From NCBI GenBank assembly GCA_947503435.1, contig CANNDL010000002.1, positions 339,258 to 403,257 of the forward strand: a stretch of DNA of 64,000 nt, written 5' to 3'. Source of the DNA: an uncultured Kangiella sp. (lineage in GTDB: Bacteria; Pseudomonadota; Gammaproteobacteria; Enterobacterales; Kangiellaceae). Shown here piece after piece: positions 14,022 through 19,783 of this stretch. Within the stretch, counting starts at the first letter, position 1; each line of letters opens with the position of its first letter. A program made the translations under genes and the position numbers. Under the pieces are notes generated by a model. It saw only the letters and a program-made list of their open reading frames with translations. It was not told where the DNA came from and did not search any database.

Positions 14022-14591
14022 CTATATTTTATCGCAATTAAGTCTAAATCCTTCTTGCCATTTTTTGCCGTCATTTAAAGCTGAAGATTCATATTTCCAG
14101 TCAAAGTGCTTTTCGCTAATATTATGAAACGTTATCTTCGCTTTGTGTGCTGGGCCTCTAGGGCTAGCAGGATACTCTCCGTCCATTACTAAACTTTCGC
14201 CATCAAATTTTGCATCAAAATTTTGGAAGCGGGCTAACTTGTCGAAGGTCCAAGTCATCAACCAAGAATCGTTTTGTGGGTTGTAGATACGAACATTTGT
14301 ACCCATACCAGGAGCTTCCAAATTTTCGGCATTTGGATACCAATAATCTTGGATGGCATGACCATTAAGAGTGTACCGCCATTCCCAGCGAGATACTTGT
14401 TCGGGTATTTGCCAACTACCATCTTGTTGGCGTACTTGACGTTTACATTTCCAATCACCTATCAATGGTAGCATCGATTTAACGCTATCAGCAGCGTCTT
14501 TTGCTGGTGTCATTGAAGTATAATCAGCACTTGATACAGTAGAAATAGCAAGGAATGTAATTAAAGAAATTGATTTATAGATAGTCTTCAT
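14022..14591 (-). CDS. secreted protein, DUF1579-like
   Basis: The 189-residue protein begins with a signal peptide cleaved near AISTVSSA. The mature part has the pattern LPLIGDWKCKRQV...WEWRYTLNGHAIQDYWY...TWTFDKLARFQNFDAKFDGESLVMDG, which resembles the lipocalin-like DUF1579 proteins that bind or sense small hydrophobic molecules. The family assignment is from pattern memory, not a search. It is upstream of and co-directional with the amidohydrolase (53-base gap), so the two may form a small unit. Confidence 0.68.
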   Translation of the reverse strand: MKTIYKSISLITFLAISTVSSADYTSMTPAKDAADSVKSMLPLIGDWKCKRQVRQQDGSWQIPEQVSRWEWRYTLNGHAIQDYWYPNAENLEAPGMGTNVRIYNPQNDSWLMTWTFDKLARFQNFDAKFDGESLVMDGEYPASPRGPAHKAKITFHNISEKHFDWKYESSALNDGKKWQEGFRLNCDKI

Positions 14592-14670: not shown

Positions 14671-15576
14671 TTAACCGTTTTTATTTACGACGCCATTGGG
14701 AACGTGTCCGCTTGCAATATGTTCTTTAGCTCGGTCGATATGCCCTTCCTGATCATCAAAGAAAACATCGGCGCCAAACGCTTTTAAAAACTCAGTTTTA
14801 TCCATTCCACCGAGGAACAACGCTTCATCAATACGAATATCCCAATAGCGCAGTGTACGGATAACGCGTTCATGAGCAGGGGCTGAGCGAGCTGTAACTA
14901 ATGCGGTTCTGATTGGGCACTCTTCGGAGCTGTATTCTTTTTGAATTTTGTGTAGCGCGGCCAAGAAATCTTTAAAAGGACCGCCTTCTAACGGCTTTTG
15001 CGCTGAGGCTTTTTCATGCTTCGTGAACTCTTCTAAACCACTTTGTTGATAGACCTTTTCAGCCTCATCTGAAAACAAAACTGCATCACCATCAAAAGCA
15101 AATTTAATATGAGTTAAGTCACTTTTAGCTTGATTGGGCGCGACAATAGTTGCCGCGGCTATTCCATTATCAATAGCTTGCTTAACATCATAAGGATTAG
15201 TCGATAAAAACAAATGGGCACCAAAAGCTGATGCGTACAAATAAGGACTATTTCCTGAAGTGAAAGCCGCGCGCGTTATTTGTAATTCATGATTTTCAAT
15301 TGAATTAAAAACCCTTAATCCAGTATCAGCGCTATTACGAGAAAGTAGTATAACTTCAACTCTAGGCTTACCTTCGGCACCTATATTTAGATCAAGTAAT
15401 TTTTTAACTAAACCAAATGCAGCACCAGGTTTTAATAGCTCATCTTCGTGATCTATTTGATACTGGGCATAAGAATCAACACCTTTATCTAGATATACTC
15501 GATGACTATCAGCTAAATCGAATAAAGCGGTAGACGAAATAGCGATTACCAGAGTGTCGTTAAACTCAATTGGCAT
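14671..15576 (-). CDS. 5'-nucleotidase, cytosolic type I (NT5C1) family
   Basis: A 301-residue protein of the PF06189-type family, which dephosphorylates nucleoside 5'-monophosphates. Features are LVIAISSTALFDLADSHRVY at the N-terminus, VEVILLSRNSADTGLRVFNS, the aspartate-bearing AFDGDAVLFSDEAE and the C-terminal FGADVFFDDQEGHI with acidic metal ligands. There is no signal peptide, consistent with a cytoplasmic enzyme for nucleotide salvage. It sits 6 bases downstream of mlaA, so it is probably read on the same message, though no functional link is known. Confidence 0.85.
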   Translation of the reverse strand: MPIEFNDTLVIAISSTALFDLADSHRVYLDKGVDSYAQYQIDHEDELLKPGAAFGLVKKLLDLNIGAEGKPRVEVILLSRNSADTGLRVFNSIENHELQITRAAFTSGNSPYLYASAFGAHLFLSTNPYDVKQAIDNGIAAATIVAPNQAKSDLTHIKFAFDGDAVLFSDEAEKVYQQSGLEEFTKHEKASAQKPLEGGPFKDFLAALHKIQKEYSSEECPIRTALVTARSAPAHERVIRTLRYWDIRIDEALFLGGMDKTEFLKAFGADVFFDDQEGHIDRAKEHIASGHVPNGVVNKNG

Positions 15577-15582
15577 TTAGAG

Positions 15583-16314
15583 TTAAAACTCCTGGCAATC
15601 TTCTTCGAATTCACATTCATCATCTTCAATCGGCGGTTTGCCATCATGAATTAAGAATTGACGGCGTTGTAAGTATACATCTCGGATTAAAGTATAATCA
15701 TCGGGAGCCGAGTTAAGCTGATCTTCTAGACTCAGAAGACCCGCACGCGTTTGAATAATATCTAAAAGGCGTAAACCAATCTCCGTTTGGGTATCGTTTT
15801 CCAACTCTTCATACAGATTGTAAATAACAAAGCTATCCACGCCCTGACCTACCAAATCTCTAGTAGTAGAAGGCCCTAAAAAAGGCAGCATTATATAAGA
15901 GCCATCGCCTACACCCCAGGTAGCAAGGGTTTGACCAAAATCTTCCGGTTGATGCTCAATACCCATGTCCGTAGCTGGGTCAAGTAAGCCGCCTAAGCCT
16001 AAGGTTGTGTTAATCAGGAAACGGCCTGTGTCTTTTAAAGCTTTGCCAAGTTTAAATTGCAATACATCATTGATAATGGTCGGCACTTCACCAATATTTG
16101 AAAAGAAATTAGAGACTCCAGTTTCGACAACGTCAGGAGTTATCGCTTTATAGCCTTTTGCAACGGGTTTTAAAATAGCTTTATCAACACCTTTATTAAA
16201 ATCCCAAACTTTCCGGTTAAATCCTTCATAAGGATCTTGTGGATTGGAGCCTGTAGATGCACAGCCAGCCGCAAGAAAAGACAATATAATGATGGTAAAG
16301 AGTTTAGATTTCAT
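15583..16314 (-). CDS. mlaA: outer-membrane lipid asymmetry lipoprotein MlaA (VacJ)
   Basis: A 243-residue lipoprotein (lipobox LAAGC, C18) with the VacJ hallmark DPYEGFNRKVWDFNKGVDKA followed by FLINTTLGLGGLLDPATDMG and LPFLGPSTTRD. MlaA removes mislocalised phospholipid from the outer leaflet of the outer membrane and passes it to MlaC. The mlaBCDEF genes are not in the window. It ends 6 bases before the 5'-nucleotidase gene and lies 55 bases downstream of hvfC. Confidence 0.94.
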   Translation of the reverse strand: MKSKLFTIIILSFLAAGCASTGSNPQDPYEGFNRKVWDFNKGVDKAILKPVAKGYKAITPDVVETGVSNFFSNIGEVPTIINDVLQFKLGKALKDTGRFLINTTLGLGGLLDPATDMGIEHQPEDFGQTLATWGVGDGSYIMLPFLGPSTTRDLVGQGVDSFVIYNLYEELENDTQTEIGLRLLDIIQTRAGLLSLEDQLNSAPDDYTLIRDVYLQRRQFLIHDGKPPIEDDECEFEEDCQEF

Positions 16315-16369
16315 CCTACAACCTTTTTAATAGTTATTACCGCTTATTGTAACAACAAGTGACTAAAAG

Positions 16370-17149
16370 TTATAGATTGACTCCTAGAATTACATCTCGT
16401 TCCAAAAAATCTCGGAGTATTTGTTTACCGCCTTCGATAAGCTGTAGCGGATTTGGGAATTGAGACTCACCTTGCAATTGAGCTATAGCTTCTTCACCAG
16501 TTAATTGAAGATTTTTTTCAGCCTCAGCTTCTTGTAAAATTTCAAGTAATCGATAGGTAATCGCATTAGTTTCCATAAAATCTACTTCATGCTCACGATT
16601 TCTTGAAATGATTAGAAAAGTTGGCTGCTCAGGTTCTGATTCTGGTAAGTAAGCATCTCCGATTCGATGTACAGGGTATTGATAAACCAAAGGCCATGCC
16701 AATGGTGATATCACTATTTTCTGCTGATACAAGTCGCCATTACGATCATGTGGAAATTGTTTAATATCACCTACATCAGATAAAGCATTGAGCTCCATCC
16801 ATTCCCAGTGAGCTAACTCAAGCATAAAAGGATAATCATCATTTGACGTTTCACGGTGATTTTCTAAATAATCCAAAAATGCTTTGGAAATGTCCTTAAA
16901 ATATGGACTATGTGCACGGTAATGAACAAAGAAATCTCTTACTAATTGATGCCATTTTTCCTCAGCAATTAAATCTCTTAATATTGGGAAGCTATTACTG
17001 CAAAAGTTTTCAACATTGTTATAAAACAAGTCTCTATACACTTTCATCCGTCTATCTTCAATATTGGAAGGCTTGGCAACTCCTTCCGGGTTCCTTAAAT
17101 GTCCGGCGAAATCAAATTGCACTTGTTGAAACTTAGGTAAGTTGCTCAT
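16370..17149 (-). CDS. hvfC: HvfC/BufC-type partner protein (DUF2063 N-terminal domain)
   Basis: A 259-residue cytoplasmic protein with the DUF2063 pattern: DRRMKVYRDLFYNNVENFCSNSFPILRDLI, then FVHYRAHSPYF and LELAHWEWMEL. In characterised hvf and bufferin clusters this protein pairs with the DUF692 oxidase and delivers the precursor peptide to it. Here it follows hvfB by 12 bases in the same direction, which fits an obligate enzyme complex. The C-terminal half (LIISRNREHEVDFMETN, GKQILRDFLERDVILGV) resembles the winged-helix-like tail of such partners. It is the last gene of the cluster. Confidence 0.9.
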   Translation of the reverse strand: MSNLPKFQQVQFDFAGHLRNPEGVAKPSNIEDRRMKVYRDLFYNNVENFCSNSFPILRDLIAEEKWHQLVRDFFVHYRAHSPYFKDISKAFLDYLENHRETSNDDYPFMLELAHWEWMELNALSDVGDIKQFPHDRNGDLYQQKIVISPLAWPLVYQYPVHRIGDAYLPESEPEQPTFLIISRNREHEVDFMETNAITYRLLEILQEAEAEKNLQLTGEEAIAQLQGESQFPNPLQLIEGGKQILRDFLERDVILGVNL

Positions 17150-17161
17150 AATTTTCTACCT

Positions 17162-18010
17162 TTAAGCAATGGCTTTGCCGCTTAAATCTTGAGCTAAATA
17201 TTTTTGCTGAATCGTTTTTATTTGTGCTACTTCAGCCAATAACTGGTCCATTGGTGGAATATTAAAATCACGCTCAAGCAGAGTTGGAAATACGCCAAAT
17301 TCTTGATATGCAATTTCTAACAAAGCCCAGACATCAGGTTTTACGTCTGCTCCGTGAGTATCGACCTTTAAATCATCCGCTTCATCATAATGACCGGCAA
17401 TATGGGCGTAAGAAATTCGCTCCTTAGGTAACGCCTTCAAGAACTCTTCAGCATCGTAACGGTGATTTATGCTATTCACATAGATATTATTAACGTCCAA
17501 TAATAAATCACAATTAGCTTCTTCAAGTACCGCCAGCAAAAAATCCAGCTCCTTCATTTCCTGGCCTGGAGCGGCATAATAAGACACATTTTCCATAGCC
17601 AGCTTCATACCAATAATATCTTGAACCTGCTTGATTCGATCAGCCACATAGTGAACCGCTTCTTCGGTGAACGGAATAGGCATCAAATCGTATAAATGAC
17701 CATCATCGCTACAATAGCTTAAATGTTCACTATAAGACTTAATATTATATTTCTGGATAAACTTAGCCACTTGTTTTACAAAGTCAGTATCCAGAGGCGT
17801 TGGCCCGCCAATTGATAAGGATAAACCATGAATTACAAACGGATAGCGTTCTGCATATTGTTCAAACTGCTTACTAAACTTCCCCCCAAAAGGAATCCAG
17901 TTTTCTGGAGCAACTTCCATAAAATCAACGCATGAACGACTAATCGCATCAAATTCGTCAGAAAAATCACGTCGTAATCCTAATCCTGCGCCTGTTACTA
18001 ATTGGGTCAT
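17162..18010 (-). CDS. hvfB: multinuclear non-heme iron oxidase (MNIO, DUF692) HvfB/BufB
   Basis: A 282-residue TIM-barrel enzyme of the DUF692 family. Likely iron ligands are visible: H61 (in HGLSLSIGG), E95/H96 (SEHLSY), E140 (MENVSYY), D172 and N174/N175 (LLDVNNIYVN), H203/H207 (HIAGHYDE), D217/H219 (DTHG) and E246 (LERDFNIP). In studied homologs this enzyme uses iron and oxygen to convert cysteines of EGKCG motifs into oxazolone/thioamide or thiooxazole groups that bind copper. All key positions look intact. The substrate HvfA is the preceding gene, with a hairpin in between. The start follows an AAAGG site. Confidence 0.93.
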   Translation of the reverse strand: MTQLVTGAGLGLRRDFSDEFDAISRSCVDFMEVAPENWIPFGGKFSKQFEQYAERYPFVIHGLSLSIGGPTPLDTDFVKQVAKFIQKYNIKSYSEHLSYCSDDGHLYDLMPIPFTEEAVHYVADRIKQVQDIIGMKLAMENVSYYAAPGQEMKELDFLLAVLEEANCDLLLDVNNIYVNSINHRYDAEEFLKALPKERISYAHIAGHYDEADDLKVDTHGADVKPDVWALLEIAYQEFGVFPTLLERDFNIPPMDQLLAEVAQIKTIQQKYLAQDLSGKAIA

Positions 18011-18048
18011 TGGGAGAACCTTTCACTAAACTGTTTCTTTAGATATGA

Positions 18049-18074
18049 AAAAGTGGCAGCAAGCTGCCACTTTT
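18049..18074 (-). terminator. intra-operon terminator/attenuator between hvfA and hvfB
   Basis: A perfect 12-bp inverted repeat (AAAAGTGGCAGC / GCTGCCACTTTT) has only two bases between the arms; folded, it closes on a CUUG tetraloop. On the minus strand it is followed by a run of five T residues. It sits 20 bases after the hvfA stop and 39 bases before the hvfB start. Partial termination here would give many more precursor than enzyme transcripts, the usual logic of peptide-natural-product operons. Confidence 0.88.
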
Positions 18075-18093
18075 ATTCGAGAGAGTTAAAAAA

Positions 18094-18621
18094 TTAACCG
18101 CCGCATTTACCTTCGCCGCACTTACCTTCTTTTCCTTTTTTCTCGCCTTTCTCGCCGCATTTACCTTCGCCGCACTTACCTTCTTTTCCTTTCTTTTCGC
18201 CGCACTTACCTTCGCCGCACTTACCTTCTTTTCCTTTCTTCTCGCCGCATTTACCTTCGCCGCACTTACCTTCTTTGCCGTCTTTCTTGGATTCGCCGCA
18301 TTTACCTTCGCCGCACTTACCTTCTTTTCCTTTCTTCTTACCTTTTTCGCCGCACTTACCTTCGCCGCATTTGCCTTCTTTGCCGTCTTTCTTGGCTTCG
18401 CCGCATTTACCTTCGCCGCACTTGCCTTCTTTGCCGTCTTTCTTGGCTTCGCCGCACTTGCCTTCACCGCACTTGCCTTCGCCATCGAATTGCGCAAGGT
18501 TATAGCCTTGTGATAGATCATTAACTGCAAATGGGCTTGCAGAAGCTGTAGTCATTGCAACAGAGGCAGCTAATGAAGCTGATACTAAAACCGCTAATTT
18601 ACTTTTATCTTTCTTCAACAT
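18094..18621 (-). CDS. hvfA: HvfA/bufferin-type RiPP metallophore precursor with 16 EGKCG motifs
   Basis: The 175-residue precursor has a Sec signal (basic start, hydrophobic core, ASA cleavage near residue 28), so the product is exported. From residue 48 to the end it is built of eight units, each a pair EGKCGEGKCG, joined by lysine-rich linkers (EAKKDGK twice, EKGKKKGK, ESKKDGK, EKKGK twice, EKGEKKGK) and ending GG. That gives 16 EGKCG motifs holding all 16 cysteines, with no histidine, methionine or aromatic residue in the array. In studied relatives the adjacent DUF692 enzyme oxidises these cysteines to copper-binding groups. A TAGGAGT ribosome site precedes the ATG at 18621. Confidence 0.93.
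   Translation of the reverse strand: MLKKDKSKLAVLVSASLAASVAMTTASASPFAVNDLSQGYNLAQFDGEGKCGEGKCGEAKKDGKEGKCGEGKCGEAKKDGKEGKCGEGKCGEKGKKKGKEGKCGEGKCGESKKDGKEGKCGEGKCGEKKGKEGKCGEGKCGEKKGKEGKCGEGKCGEKGEKKGKEGKCGEGKCGG
18097..18480 (-). repeat. in-frame tandem repeat array encoding paired EGKCG motifs
   Basis: 384 bases made of units of 51, 51, 54, 51, 45, 45, 54 and 33 bases, all multiples of three. Several units are almost identical at the DNA level (the plus strand repeats ccgcatttaccttcgccgca), so slipped-strand pairing or recombination could add or remove motif pairs without breaking the frame. The array stays open in a second frame as well, a by-product of the repeat. Confidence 0.9.
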
Positions 18622-18660
18622 GAGATTACTCCTAAAATGTGTTTACAATATAATCAAGCA

Positions 18661-18690
18661 GTTAGACATAAAGCCTTGAAGATTGTTACA
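18661..18690 (-). promoter_or_regulatory. ECF-sigma-like promoter of hvfA
   Basis: Read on the minus strand: TGTAAC (18690-18685), a 16-base spacer, then TGTCTAAC (18668-18661). The AAC core in the -35 box and the GTC core in the -10 box at this spacing are typical of extracytoplasmic-function sigma factors. The -10 ends 39 bases before the hvfA ATG, leaving a short leader. An alternative sigma-70 box (TATATT) lies nearer the gene. No ECF sigma or anti-sigma gene is adjacent. Confidence 0.55.
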
Positions 18691-18763
18691 TCTAAACTTT
18701 GATAGTTTGAGACTAATCGCTGTTTTTTATTAAGTCAAAGCATAGGTAGGATTATTTTAGAAA

Positions 18764-19783
18764 CTAGTTCACAGATTGATCAATTGCTAGCTTATAGGTT
18801 TGAGCGGCTTTCAAGCCATTGAATGTACTTGTTCTCCCATACAAATCACCAGTTTCTGATTTTGCAAATCCAGACTTAGAAAGTCTTATTTCCATATATA
18901 AATCAATAACTTGCCAAAAATCAGTATCCTTCAACATGAGATTAGAAGGGGTCATAGTAATCACGGGGGTTAATTCATTAATATCTAACGCTTTTACTGC
19001 AATTGGCGCACCACCAGCGGCCGGTCTTATCAGTGCAAATGCCTTTGTAAATGAGTGTAAAGGTACGTTAGCAAAATTATCAATTTCAATTGATATGTAA
19101 TTTAGAGCAGCTTCAGCTTGTTTTTTCTTCGCCAAATCAATTTGTTGCTGTATCAAGTTTGCCGAATCACTACTTGGCTCTCTTAGAGAAACTAAATAAT
19201 TCCAAGAGTCGATGGCCATTTGATAATCATCTAATCGCATAGCAGCCATTCCTCTAAGCAACAAGGCTCCTTCGTGCTTAGGATTTTTCAACAAGACTAA
19301 CTCTATATAAGATAATGCTTCTTTATAATTCTTTCGTTCGATATATGTCTGAGCGACTTCAAGCTTGCTTTTATTTTGCTGCATAATATCGCCAAAATTG
19401 ACTGCTCTACCAAACGCTTGCTCAGCCAGCTCTTGTTGTTCTGATTGCAGTAATAGTCGTCCAAAAGTCATCCAATTTTCGGAAGTATCATCTTCTAAGT
19501 TGCGCAGCCTTACCTCAGAAAACAATTCTTCTATGCTGATTTCTTTATTGCTTGTTTTTTCTAGTAAAGCCCTTAAATCATCCGCCTTTAATGATTCATG
19601 CAATCTGCTTAATTTCTGAAGTTCTTTTGTTGCACCTAATTGCACATAAAGAGCATAGGAACTAACTACCGCTAATAAACACGAACTGGTGAATACCAAC
19701 AATCTTTGCTTACTCGAATAAACGCTAGCAAAGAGCCAAGTTGCCCACGCTAGAGCGACTACCGTAAAAAGTGCAATTACCAT
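18764..19783 (-). CDS. ccmI: cytochrome c biogenesis protein CcmI
   Basis: The 339-residue protein has an N-terminal membrane segment (VIALFTVVALAWATWLFASVY), a second near residue 30-50, and TPR-like helices (EQAFGRAVNFGD, YIERKNYKEALSYIELVLLKNPKHEGALLLRGMAAMRL typed in two parts here). CcmI chaperones apocytochrome c to the heme ligase. The C-terminal periplasmic domain is present (AALNYISIEIDN, FALIRPAAGGAPIAVKALDI). It is the last ccm gene, 3 bases after ccmH, and is on the short side for the family. Confidence 0.88.
   Translation of the reverse strand: MVIALFTVVALAWATWLFASVYSSKQRLLVFTSSCLLAVVSSYALYVQLGATKELQKLSRLHESLKADDLRALLEKTSNKEISIEELFSEVRLRNLEDDTSENWMTFGRLLLQSEQQELAEQAFGRAVNFGDIMQQNKSKLEVAQTYIERKNYKEALSYIELVLLKNPKHEGALLLRGMAAMRLDDYQMAIDSWNYLVSLREPSSDSANLIQQQIDLAKKKQAEAALNYISIEIDNFANVPLHSFTKAFALIRPAAGGAPIAVKALDINELTPVITMTPSNLMLKDTDFWQVIDLYMEIRLSKSGFAKSETGDLYGRTSTFNGLKAAQTYKLAIDQSVN

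What the first reader, a model, noticed from the sequence alone, without database searches (positions are those of the whole stretch)
16370..18621. HvfABC-type copper metallophore operon with a 16-motif EGKCG precursor
HvfA is a secreted 175-residue precursor whose last 128 residues contain 16 EGKCG motifs in eight pairs, and all its cysteines lie in them. HvfB (DUF692 MNIO) and HvfC (DUF2063) follow. In studied relatives (H. influenzae HvfABC, Caulobacter bufferins) such enzymes turn these cysteines into oxazolone/thioamide or thiooxazole groups that bind copper. As far as I recall, those precursors carry fewer motifs, so this one could bind an unusually large amount of copper. The paired spacing (EGKCGEGKCG) could define two-centre metal sites.
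Basis: partly seen in the sequence, partly recalled or inferred. Interest (0 to 1): 0.93.

Follow-up and report, generated by a model that had tools for sequence, protein, structure and literature searches.

The report
Stress-promoter hvfABC operon, 16-motif copper peptide
A Kangiella-group bacterium carries a three-gene operon for a likely secreted peptide whose sixteen cysteine motifs are predicted to become copper-binding groups; this is a known kind of system, not a record for motif number, but a conserved start signal that it shares with protein-repair genes suggests that it is likely switched on by oxidative stress in the cell envelope rather than by copper directly.

Summary
All three pass curated NCBIfam cut-offs of the HvfABC ("oxazolin", EGKCG captophorin) family, so this is a new member of a known, experimentally studied kind. 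Published work now assigns the modification as 5-thiooxazole, and the family reaches 58 cysteines; 16 motifs is the most among 17 readable Kangiella genes (8-16), but no record. Pairing is usual, not obligatory. An ECF-type promoter, TGTAAC-N17-GTCTAA, lies 40 nt before hvfA, is conserved across Kangiella, and recurs (one or two mismatches) before msrAB near an ECF sigma/zinc-type anti-sigma pair. In Neisseria and Haemophilus the same two targets form one ECF regulon. A covarying hairpin between hvfA and hvfB in 19 of 20 Kangiella genomes probably raises precursor over enzymes. An ECF promoter common to EGKCG operons was not described in the listings and passages I saw. Best reading: a periplasmic Cu(I)-binding peptide made as part of an envelope oxidative-stress response. 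Chemistry, copper binding and sigma dependence are untested here.

The parts
18094..18621 (-). hvfA, precursor peptide, 175 aa
   Evidence: NF050137 (7 stretches) and NF050188 at 95.3 bits vs cut-off 95
18538..18621 (-). likely Sec signal peptide (residues about 1-28, ends ASA|SP; read by eye)
   Evidence: sequence; single helix 6-21 in the low-confidence model; no signal-peptide program was run
18481..18537 (-). leader segment SPFAVNDLSQGYNLAQFDG (residues 29-47), with P30 and F31 invariant and G39, Y40 nearly so in 27 aligned proteins; presumed contact for HvfC
   Evidence: alignment A2; role inferred
18100..18480 (-). core: eight EGKCGEGKCG pairs (residues 48-174), all 16 Cys
18662..18690 (-). 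ECF-type promoter-like sequence TGTAAC-N17-GTCTAA, ends 40 nt before the hvfA ATG
18049..18074 (-). stem-loop AAAAGTGGCAG-CTTG-CTGCCACTTTT in the hvfA-hvfB gap (attenuator or mRNA 3'-end stabiliser, inferred)
17162..18010 (-). hvfB, MNIO (DUF692) maturase, 282 aa
   Evidence: PF05114 350.9 bits; NF003818 446.9 vs cut-off 360; 3BWW match 273.5 bits
16370..17149 (-). hvfC, DUF2063/RRE partner protein, 259 aa
   Evidence: PF09836 and PF22106; NF050145 289.2 vs cut-off 142; 3DEE
18764..19783 (-). ccmI-like gene at the end of the cytochrome c maturation cluster; conserved upstream neighbour, not part of the operon's chemistry
15583..16314 (-). mlaA lipoprotein gene; conserved downstream neighbour

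Best explanation
This is an HvfABC (EGKCG-type captophorin/oxazolin) operon in which HvfB with HvfC is predicted to convert the 16 cysteines of a likely secreted HvfA into 5-thiooxazoles, and whose transcription is likely started by an ECF sigma factor that also drives msrAB, so that the product would bind Cu(I) in the periplasm during envelope oxidative stress. Shown here: gene identities, motif counts, the promoter-like sequence and its conservation before hvfA and msrAB, the ECF/anti-sigma genes beside msrAB, and the covarying hairpin. Inferred: that RNA polymerase with this ECF reads both promoters; that the hairpin makes precursor exceed enzyme; that each Cys is modified, as in H. influenzae, Fontimonas, N. 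gonorrhoeae and Microbulbifer; that several Cu(I) bind per chain; and that the benefit is control of periplasmic copper while MsrAB repairs oxidised methionines.
For: Family membership over curated cut-offs for all three proteins. Site-3 residues essential in H. influenzae HvfB (N175, D242, H244; PMC13419390) correspond by motif to N175, D217 and H219, invariant in 15 aligned HvfB. Promoter: TGTAAC-N17-GTCTAA before hvfA exact in 14 of 17 readable Kangiella upstreams and within 2 mismatches in 17 of 17 (shuffle mean 0.36; the pattern was read off hvfA, so this part is partly circular); before msrAB, an independent gene, within 1 mismatch in 12 and within 2 in 17 of 19 (shuffle means 0.025 and 0.3); control upstreams 0 of 223 within 1 and 3 of 223 within 2 mismatches. 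Of 23 exact matches in 20 whole genomes (reversed-pattern control 8), 16 lie before hvfA and 2 before a second msrA. In the window's genome an ECF, a zf-HC2 anti-sigma and a YbjQ gene lie just before msrAB. Of 35 family genomes with an anti-sigma hit, 30 were read: 25 of 25 hvf-positive keep the zinc motif C/H-X23-26-H-X3-C-X2-C and 5 of 5 hvf-negative lack it. Outside Kangiella an unguided dyad search found AACT-N16-GTC in 21 of 58 hvfA upstreams (0.8 expected). Published: H. influenzae RpoE2 controls both msrAB and this operon under HOCl; the neisserial sigma-E consensus from msrAB and its DoxX operon is GTMAGBWTT-N12/13-CGTCTAAH, the same register at spacer 12.
Against: No expression, chemistry or metal data for this organism. 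In the window's own genome the pattern with 1 mismatch (12 places) is no commoner than its reversed control (15), so the msrAB site there counts only by its place and its conservation; within the window, matches at up to 3 mismatches equal chance. Two hvf-positive genomes, G009 and G030, show no anti-sigma gene; G009 also lacks the ECF, and while its hvfA promoter is the weakest (2 mismatches), its msrAB promoter is no worse than its clade's. G008 shows no such promoter at msrAB, and G016 has spacer 18. In G011 the ECF cluster lies about 5 kb from msrAB. The ECF itself has no matching promoter upstream. The anti-sigma comparison is split by genus and may be only one or two events. Outside Kangiella 34 of 58 upstreams lack even the broad motif. 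In Microbulbifer neither routine growth nor copper gave detectable MmrA, and the authors hesitate over a copper-protection role.
Confidence: 0.62

Rival explanations
1. Plain copper-detoxification operon: hvfABC answers directly to copper, in line with bufferins, which enhance growth under copper stress, and the 16 sites simply raise copper capacity.
For: 5-thiooxazole peptides bind Cu(I), and a MBP-FonA product bound up to four Cu (PMC13097082); bufferins enhance growth under copper stress (PMC12452194 abstract); sigma-F of Caulobacter (GTAACC-N16-CGAA) responds to chromium and cadmium, not to agents that generate reactive oxygen.
Against: No CueR-like or Cpx-like site in 18622-18763 (consensuses recalled); promoter shared with msrAB; Microbulbifer MmrA not detected under copper.
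Confidence: 0.2
2. Redox sink: the paired thiooxazoles act mainly as reversible dithiol/disulfide groups that consume oxidants, with copper binding secondary.
For: Promoter shared with msrAB; for a modified two-Cys cassette of Microbulbifer, TCEP reduction pointed to a disulfide (PMC12538549, passage); 76 of 92 motif runs in Kangiella are pairs.
Against: Singles, triples and a quadruple occur; no direct redox data; copper binding is documented in relatives.
Confidence: 0.2
3. The promoter is read by the general envelope-stress RpoE (RseA-controlled) and not by the msrAB-linked ECF.
For: The -10 GTCTAA and spacing resemble E. coli-type sigma-E promoters (spacing recalled; GGAACTT and TCAAA quoted); the genome has an RpoE-like gene beside an RseA-like gene (L012; named by eye, no family search run on them); wider hvfA upstreams have GAAACTT-N15-GTC.
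Against: Kangiella -35 is TGTAACA, closer to neisserial GTAAGGTT; the motif recurs inside the ECF/msrAB cluster.
Confidence: 0.25

Closest known systems
HvfABC / oxazolin, nontypeable Haemophilus influenzae (PMC13419390; RpoE2 control in PMC7907618)
   Same: Precursor with EGKCG pairs, HvfB MNIO and HvfC partner; there operon and msrAB both depend on one ECF sigma factor
   Different: H. influenzae HvfA has 6 Cys in three pairs and the operon has a DoxX-like gene (HvfX); here 16 Cys in eight pairs and no DoxX gene in the operon (two elsewhere)
Fontiphorin (FonABC, Fontimonas thermophila) and gonophorin; class name captophorins (PMC13097082)
   Same: EGKCG core, MNIO plus PME1; of one- and two-repeat minimal substrates only the two-repeat one was turned over, which fits paired motifs
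   Different: FonA has seven sites; seen in passages only, sequences not compared here
Bulbicupramide (MmrABC, Microbulbifer; PMC12538549)
   Same: Two-Cys EGKCG cassettes, genus-wide conservation, no protease gene nearby (none seen in the window operon either); hvfC and mlaA together also in Microbulbifer loci
   Different: 5-8 Cys; no copper induction found
Buf_EGKCG/oxazolin proteins of type 1, longest in Pseudoalteromonas piscicida (PMC12452194)
   Different: Far longer extremes (506 residues, 58 Cys), so the window's 16 is well inside the family range
Bufferins 1 and 2 (DUF2282, Buf_6/12Cys)
   Same: MNIO/DUF2063 thiooxazole peptides
   Different: Different precursor; HvfB scores 268.1 against the BufB cut-off of 310

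Membership tests
HvfABC / EGKCG captophorin (oxazolin) | Precursor with repeated EGKCG motifs | tested here: met
   16 motifs; NF050137 and NF050188 over cut-off, the latter by 0.3 bit
HvfABC / EGKCG captophorin (oxazolin) | Sec signal peptide on the precursor | tested here: inconclusive
   N-terminus looks like one by eye; no signal-peptide program available
HvfABC / EGKCG captophorin (oxazolin) | HvfB-type MNIO with iron-site residues | tested here: met
   NF003818 over cut-off; N175, D217, H219 invariant in 15 sequences, matched by motif to residues named in PMC13419390
HvfABC / EGKCG captophorin (oxazolin) | DUF2063 partner protein with RRE | tested here: met
   NF050145 289.2 vs 142
HvfABC / EGKCG captophorin (oxazolin) | DoxX gene in the cluster (frequent, not obligatory) | tested here: not met
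   None between ccmI and mlaA; two DoxX genes elsewhere in the genome. The landscape paper gives core genes 'in various combinations', so not disqualifying
HvfABC / EGKCG captophorin (oxazolin) | Cys converted to 5-thiooxazole | not testable with these tools
   needs mass spectrometry and NMR
HvfABC / EGKCG captophorin (oxazolin) | Cu(I) binding | not testable with these tools
   needs protein
ECF regulon of msrAB and the MNIO operon (Neisseria sigma-E, Haemophilus RpoE2) | Shared promoter before hvfA and msrAB | tested here: met
   genus-wide; register as; not distinguishable from chance in the window's genome alone
ECF regulon of msrAB and the MNIO operon (Neisseria sigma-E, Haemophilus RpoE2) | ECF with zinc-motif (ZAS) anti-sigma | tested here: met
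ECF regulon of msrAB and the MNIO operon (Neisseria sigma-E, Haemophilus RpoE2) | Transcription depends on that ECF | not testable with these tools
   needs a deletion strain
Bufferin 1/2 | DUF2282 or Buf_6/12Cys precursor, BufB maturase | tested here: not met
   no Pfam hit for HvfA, so no DUF2282; BufB model 268.1 below 310; Buf_6/12Cys profile not available here
Methanobactin | MbnB-type enzyme | tested here: not met
   TIGR04159 48.7 vs cut-off 325

The most novel reading that the evidence does not exclude
EGKCG peptides are primarily the oxidant-facing arm of a conserved ECF/MsrAB envelope-repair regulon. Each EGKCGEGKCG pair becomes a thiooxazole dithiol/disulfide switch, so HvfA is a 16-site periplasmic redox-and-copper sponge made in excess over its maturation enzymes through a conserved hairpin, and the same promoter logic holds for EGKCG operons across Gammaproteobacteria.
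Probability: 0.25. Interest if true: 0.78.

Novelty: new member of a known kind. Interest (0 to 1): 0.5.

Why it matters
What EGKCG peptides are for is unsettled: copper detoxification, envelope oxidative stress, or something else (the Microbulbifer authors hesitate to assign copper protection; the captophorin authors call for biological studies). A precise promoter shared with msrAB, in a genus in which all 20 genomes held here carry the operon, turns that into a simple genetic test in a bacterium outside the pathogens studied so far: delete one ECF gene and measure two transcripts under HOCl versus copper. The hairpin and its covariation offer a testable reason why a short precursor could be made in excess over its enzymes.

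Tried and rejected
Record motif number: rejected; 58 Cys reported in P. piscicida. Within what I counted, 16 EGKCG is the highest: 17 of 20 Kangiella with a complete gene gave 8-16, 54 complete genes among 80 named loci gave at most 14 (for L207 and L256 the chosen precursor lies about 2.4 kb from hvfB), and 0 of 120 listed homologues of 5,861 found had 16 or more KCG (that search excludes proteins longer than 1.75 times the query and lists best scores first). By cysteines alone others reach 17 (L207) and 20 (one of the 120).

Obligatory pairing as two-centre sites: rejected as a rule. Beta-helix with inward Cys, reported for a mid-size family member: not reproduced; the model was disordered (27-row alignment).

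Copper-sensor or Cpx site before hvfA: none in 18622-18763 (consensuses recalled). Known RNA family in 15400-19400: none at gathering scores. Sigma-70 promoter: 12 sites against 11.5 in shuffles. The terminator scan lists the hvfA-hvfB hairpin (6 sites in the region against a shuffle mean of 3.3), but several relatives lack a T-run after it, so a simple intrinsic terminator is not a full explanation.

ECF autoregulation: no motif before the msrAB-linked ECF. Family-wide tie of the ECF cluster to hvf: rejected, since hvf-lacking genera also have the ECF/anti-sigma/YbjQ set, though with an anti-sigma lacking the zinc residues. MsrA next to the cluster outside Kangiella: not seen on the + strand of the family loci printed (the minus strand was scanned for the motif only). 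DoxX genes elsewhere: no such promoter within 2 mismatches in their 1.5-kb flanks.

Rows dropped: G003, G004 and G008 from full motif counts (contig ends inside hvfA); G015 from the 19-genome msrAB shuffle test (it shows 2 mismatches); 26 of 80 named loci without a complete EGKCG precursor; 6 of 20 Kangiella hairpins from the covariation count (14 used, chosen by hand for diversity; G009's does not fit). In that count one of five measures, further pair types, did not exceed shuffles (14 against 15.2), and the structure was drawn from the same sequences. The broad pattern [TG]{1,2}[AT]AAC-N16-18-GTC was written after seeing earlier results; the dyad ranking in that call was unguided.

Papers: PMC13419390 (first of six parts, and passages), PMC7907618 (outline with abstract, section 29, passages), PMC13097082, PMC12452194, PMC12538549, PMC3511200, PMC2893595, PMC3240639 (passages only). 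Other papers were seen as search listings only.
Full report
WHAT IS THERE. On the minus strand, between a ccmI-like gene at the end of a cytochrome c maturation cluster (18764-19783) and mlaA (15583-16314), lie hvfA (18094-18621), hvfB (17162-18010) and hvfC (16370-17149). HvfA is 175 aa; residues 48-174 are eight EGKCGEGKCG pairs with linkers of 5, 7 or 8 residues, and all 16 Cys are in the motifs. HvfB hits PF05114 at 350.9 bits and the HvfB equivalog NF003818 at 446.9 (cut-off 360); HvfC hits NF050145 at 289.2 (cut-off 142); HvfA hits NF050137 with 7 stretches and NF050188 at 95.3, just over its cut-off of 95.

WHOSE GENOME. So the genus is Kangiella. All 20 genus genomes searched carry HvfC above cut-off.

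HOW UNUSUAL IS 16? In the 17 of 20 Kangiella genomes with a complete gene, motif number runs from 8 to 16 and the window has the most. Among 80 named loci found by HvfB, 54 had a complete EGKCG precursor, with at most 14 motifs. None of 120 listed homologues (of 5,861 found) had 16 or more KCG, though one has 20 Cys. But the landscape paper reports 31-506 residues and up to 58 Cys (PMC12452194). In G003, G004, G008, G030 and G052 the contig ends inside this gene, so repeat arrays are assembly-prone. Pairing is the rule rather than a law: 76 pairs, 8 singles, 7 triples and 1 quadruple in the genus. The structure model was disordered apart from the N-terminal helix (mean pLDDT 45.6).

CHEMISTRY, FROM THE LITERATURE. 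In H. influenzae HvfB with HvfC turns the six Cys of HvfA into 5-thiooxazoles, a reassignment of the earlier oxazolone/thioamide structure; a mixed-valent diiron form correlates with activity (PMC13419390). Fontiphorin has seven such groups, and of one- and two-repeat minimal substrates only the two-repeat one was turned over (PMC13097082). The window HvfB is closest among solved chains to 3BWW (273.5 bits), a diiron MNIO according to PMC13419390. The residues tested there (N175, D242, H244) correspond by motif to N175, D217 and H219 here, invariant in 15 aligned HvfB.

THE PROMOTER. TGTAACAATCTTCAAGGCTTTATGTCTAA (18690 to 18662, minus strand) ends 40 nt before the hvfA ATG. It is the only exact TGTAAC-N15..17-GTCTAA in the genome. 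Exact matches to TGTAAC-N17-GTCTAA in 20 genus genomes number 23 (reversed-pattern control: 8): 16 before hvfA, 2 before a second msrA (G003, G012), 1 before an apparently secreted protein (G018), 1 unclear (G008) and 3 inside genes. With a fixed spacer of 17, hvfA has it exactly in 14 of 17 readable upstreams, within 1 mismatch in 16 and within 2 in 17 (shuffle means 0.0, 0.015 and 0.36); since the pattern was read off hvfA this is partly circular. msrAB is the independent test: 12 of 19 within 1 and 17 of 19 within 2 (shuffle means 0.025 and 0.3). Of 223 control upstreams from the genus hvf loci, 0 reach 1 and 3 reach 2 mismatches. Counting all 20 genomes, msrAB has it within 2 mismatches in 18, in G016 with spacer 18, and not in G008. 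Five of ten second-msrA loci read carry TGTAAC-N17 with at most 1 mismatch. These genomes are related, so not 20 independent cases. Against it: in the window's genome alone, 12 places match within 1 mismatch and 15 match the reversed control, so the msrAB site there is convincing only through its place and its conservation; within the window, matches with up to 3 mismatches are at chance (8 against 7.76).

THE SIGMA FACTOR. In the window's genome the msrAB promoter (contig C3, 273253-273281) lies right after an ECF gene, a zf-HC2 anti-sigma gene and a YbjQ gene. Within the 1.5-kb flanks fetched with msrAB, YbjQ is seen in 18 of 20 genus loci and the ECF in 13 (some flanks end before it); in G011 the cluster is about 5 kb away. 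The anti-sigma carries C-X25-H-X3-C-X2-C, the zinc motif that PMC7907618 quotes for the anti-sigma factors of its group. In the family, 35 of 40 genomes have an anti-sigma hit; of the 30 read, 25 of 25 hvf-positive ones have this motif and 5 of 5 hvf-negative ones do not. As this is split by genus it may be one or two events. G009 and G030 carry hvf without a detected anti-sigma. G009 also lacks the ECF, and its hvfA promoter is the weakest (2 mismatches), but its msrAB promoter is like its clade's. So the assignment to this ECF is likely, not shown.

A WIDER PATTERN. In 58 hvfA upstreams from outside Kangiella (six of them same-family), an unguided search for dyads returned AACT-N16-GTC in 21 (0.8 expected), that is GAAACTT-N15-GTC; a broader pattern, written afterwards, is in 24 of 58 against a shuffle mean of 1.75 and maximum of 4, and 34 lack it. 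The six family genomes have TGTAACA with GTC at the same distance. In N. meningitidis the sigma-E consensus from msrA/msrB and its DoxX operon is GTMAGBWTT, 12-13 nt, CGTCTAAH (PMC2893595), the same register at spacer 12; in H. influenzae RpoE2 controls msrAB and the hvf/DoxX operon under HOCl (PMC7907618); in Caulobacter sigma-F reads GTAACC-N16-CGAA before DUF2282/DUF692/DUF2063 operons under chromium and cadmium but not under agents that generate reactive oxygen (PMC3511200). I saw no description of an ECF promoter common to EGKCG operons in the listings of searches (17 of 18 shown; 2 of 3; 15 of 42; 11 of 12) or in passages of the two survey papers.

THE HAIRPIN. The 83-nt hvfA-hvfB gap holds AAAAGTGGCAG-CTTG-CTGCCACTTTT (18074 to 18049). 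A hairpin exceeding shuffles (2% level) is present in 19 of 20 Kangiella genomes; the exception, G009, has a long interrupted stem instead. On 14 hairpins chosen from the 20, 10 of 11 pairs show changes on both sides, 90.3% of cells pair, and the covariation score is 0.577 against 0.307 in shuffles and at most 0.242 when slid; the count of further pair types does not exceed shuffles. It is not universal: among the other relatives read, G020, G041, G050 and G055 have one, while G023, G024, G027, G030, G033, G036, G049 and G052, most with gaps under 45 nt, do not. Of 55 readable gaps in non-Kangiella named loci, 28 are 55 nt or longer and 13 of these have one. Its place between precursor and enzymes suggests that it makes precursor exceed enzyme, by partial termination or by protecting the hvfA mRNA end. 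The lack of a T-run in several species leans to the latter.

NEIGHBOURHOOD. ccmI lies upstream in 17 of 17 readable Kangiella loci and mlaA downstream in 20 of 20; the order persists in other genera of the family and in G049, and mlaA is found with hvfC in 10 of 77 non-Kangiella named loci within the DNA held. I read this as old gene order, not function.

MECHANISM PROPOSED. Envelope oxidant inactivates the zinc anti-sigma; the ECF starts hvfA and msrAB; hvfA mRNA is favoured over hvfBC; HvfBC modify the Cys before export; the exported peptide binds Cu(I) and possibly cycles redox while MsrAB repairs methionines. Shown: sequences and conservation. Inferred: every functional step.

VERDICT. A new member of a known kind, with an overlooked and testable control layer. 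The motif count alone is ordinary for the family.

Noticed in passing
window 18039-18530 (-), overlapping hvfA in another frame: A 163-aa open frame rich in KASAAK-type repeats runs through the hvfA array; similar frames appear in most of the Kangiella relatives printed, a by-product of the repeat lacking stops.
   Followed up: partly
G009 (same genus), whole genome: Lacks the msrAB-linked ECF and its anti-sigma gene though rated 100% complete; also the only genus genome without a simple hvfA-hvfB hairpin.
   Followed up: partly
L181 (G015:C38:24585-25021): The anti-sigma gene is found as two pieces, one with a stop inside, so control of the ECF may be lost in this strain.
   Followed up: no
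L145, L146, L147, L148, L149 (second msrA of G006, G019, G003, G014, G012): A second msrA, apparently without signal peptide, carries the same promoter within 1 mismatch in these five of ten second-msrA loci read; G017's is also 1 mismatch away.
   Followed up: partly
L097 (G018:C3:22649): An exact copy of the promoter pattern lies shortly before a gene for an apparently secreted 356-aa protein of unknown role: a candidate extra regulon member.
   Followed up: no
L179, L180, L182, L183, L184: Genera of the family without hvf keep the anti-sigma gene (with ECF and YbjQ seen in L179 and L182), but it lacks the zinc-binding residues.
   Followed up: partly
L054, L055, L059, L075, L081: Contigs end inside the hvfA repeat array, so motif numbers from short-read assemblies may be wrong or missing.
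   Followed up: no
window 14022-14591 (-): A 189-aa protein with an apparent signal peptide (by eye) has no Pfam or NCBIfam hit; in the relatives' fetched loci it was found only in G013 and G016.
   Followed up: no
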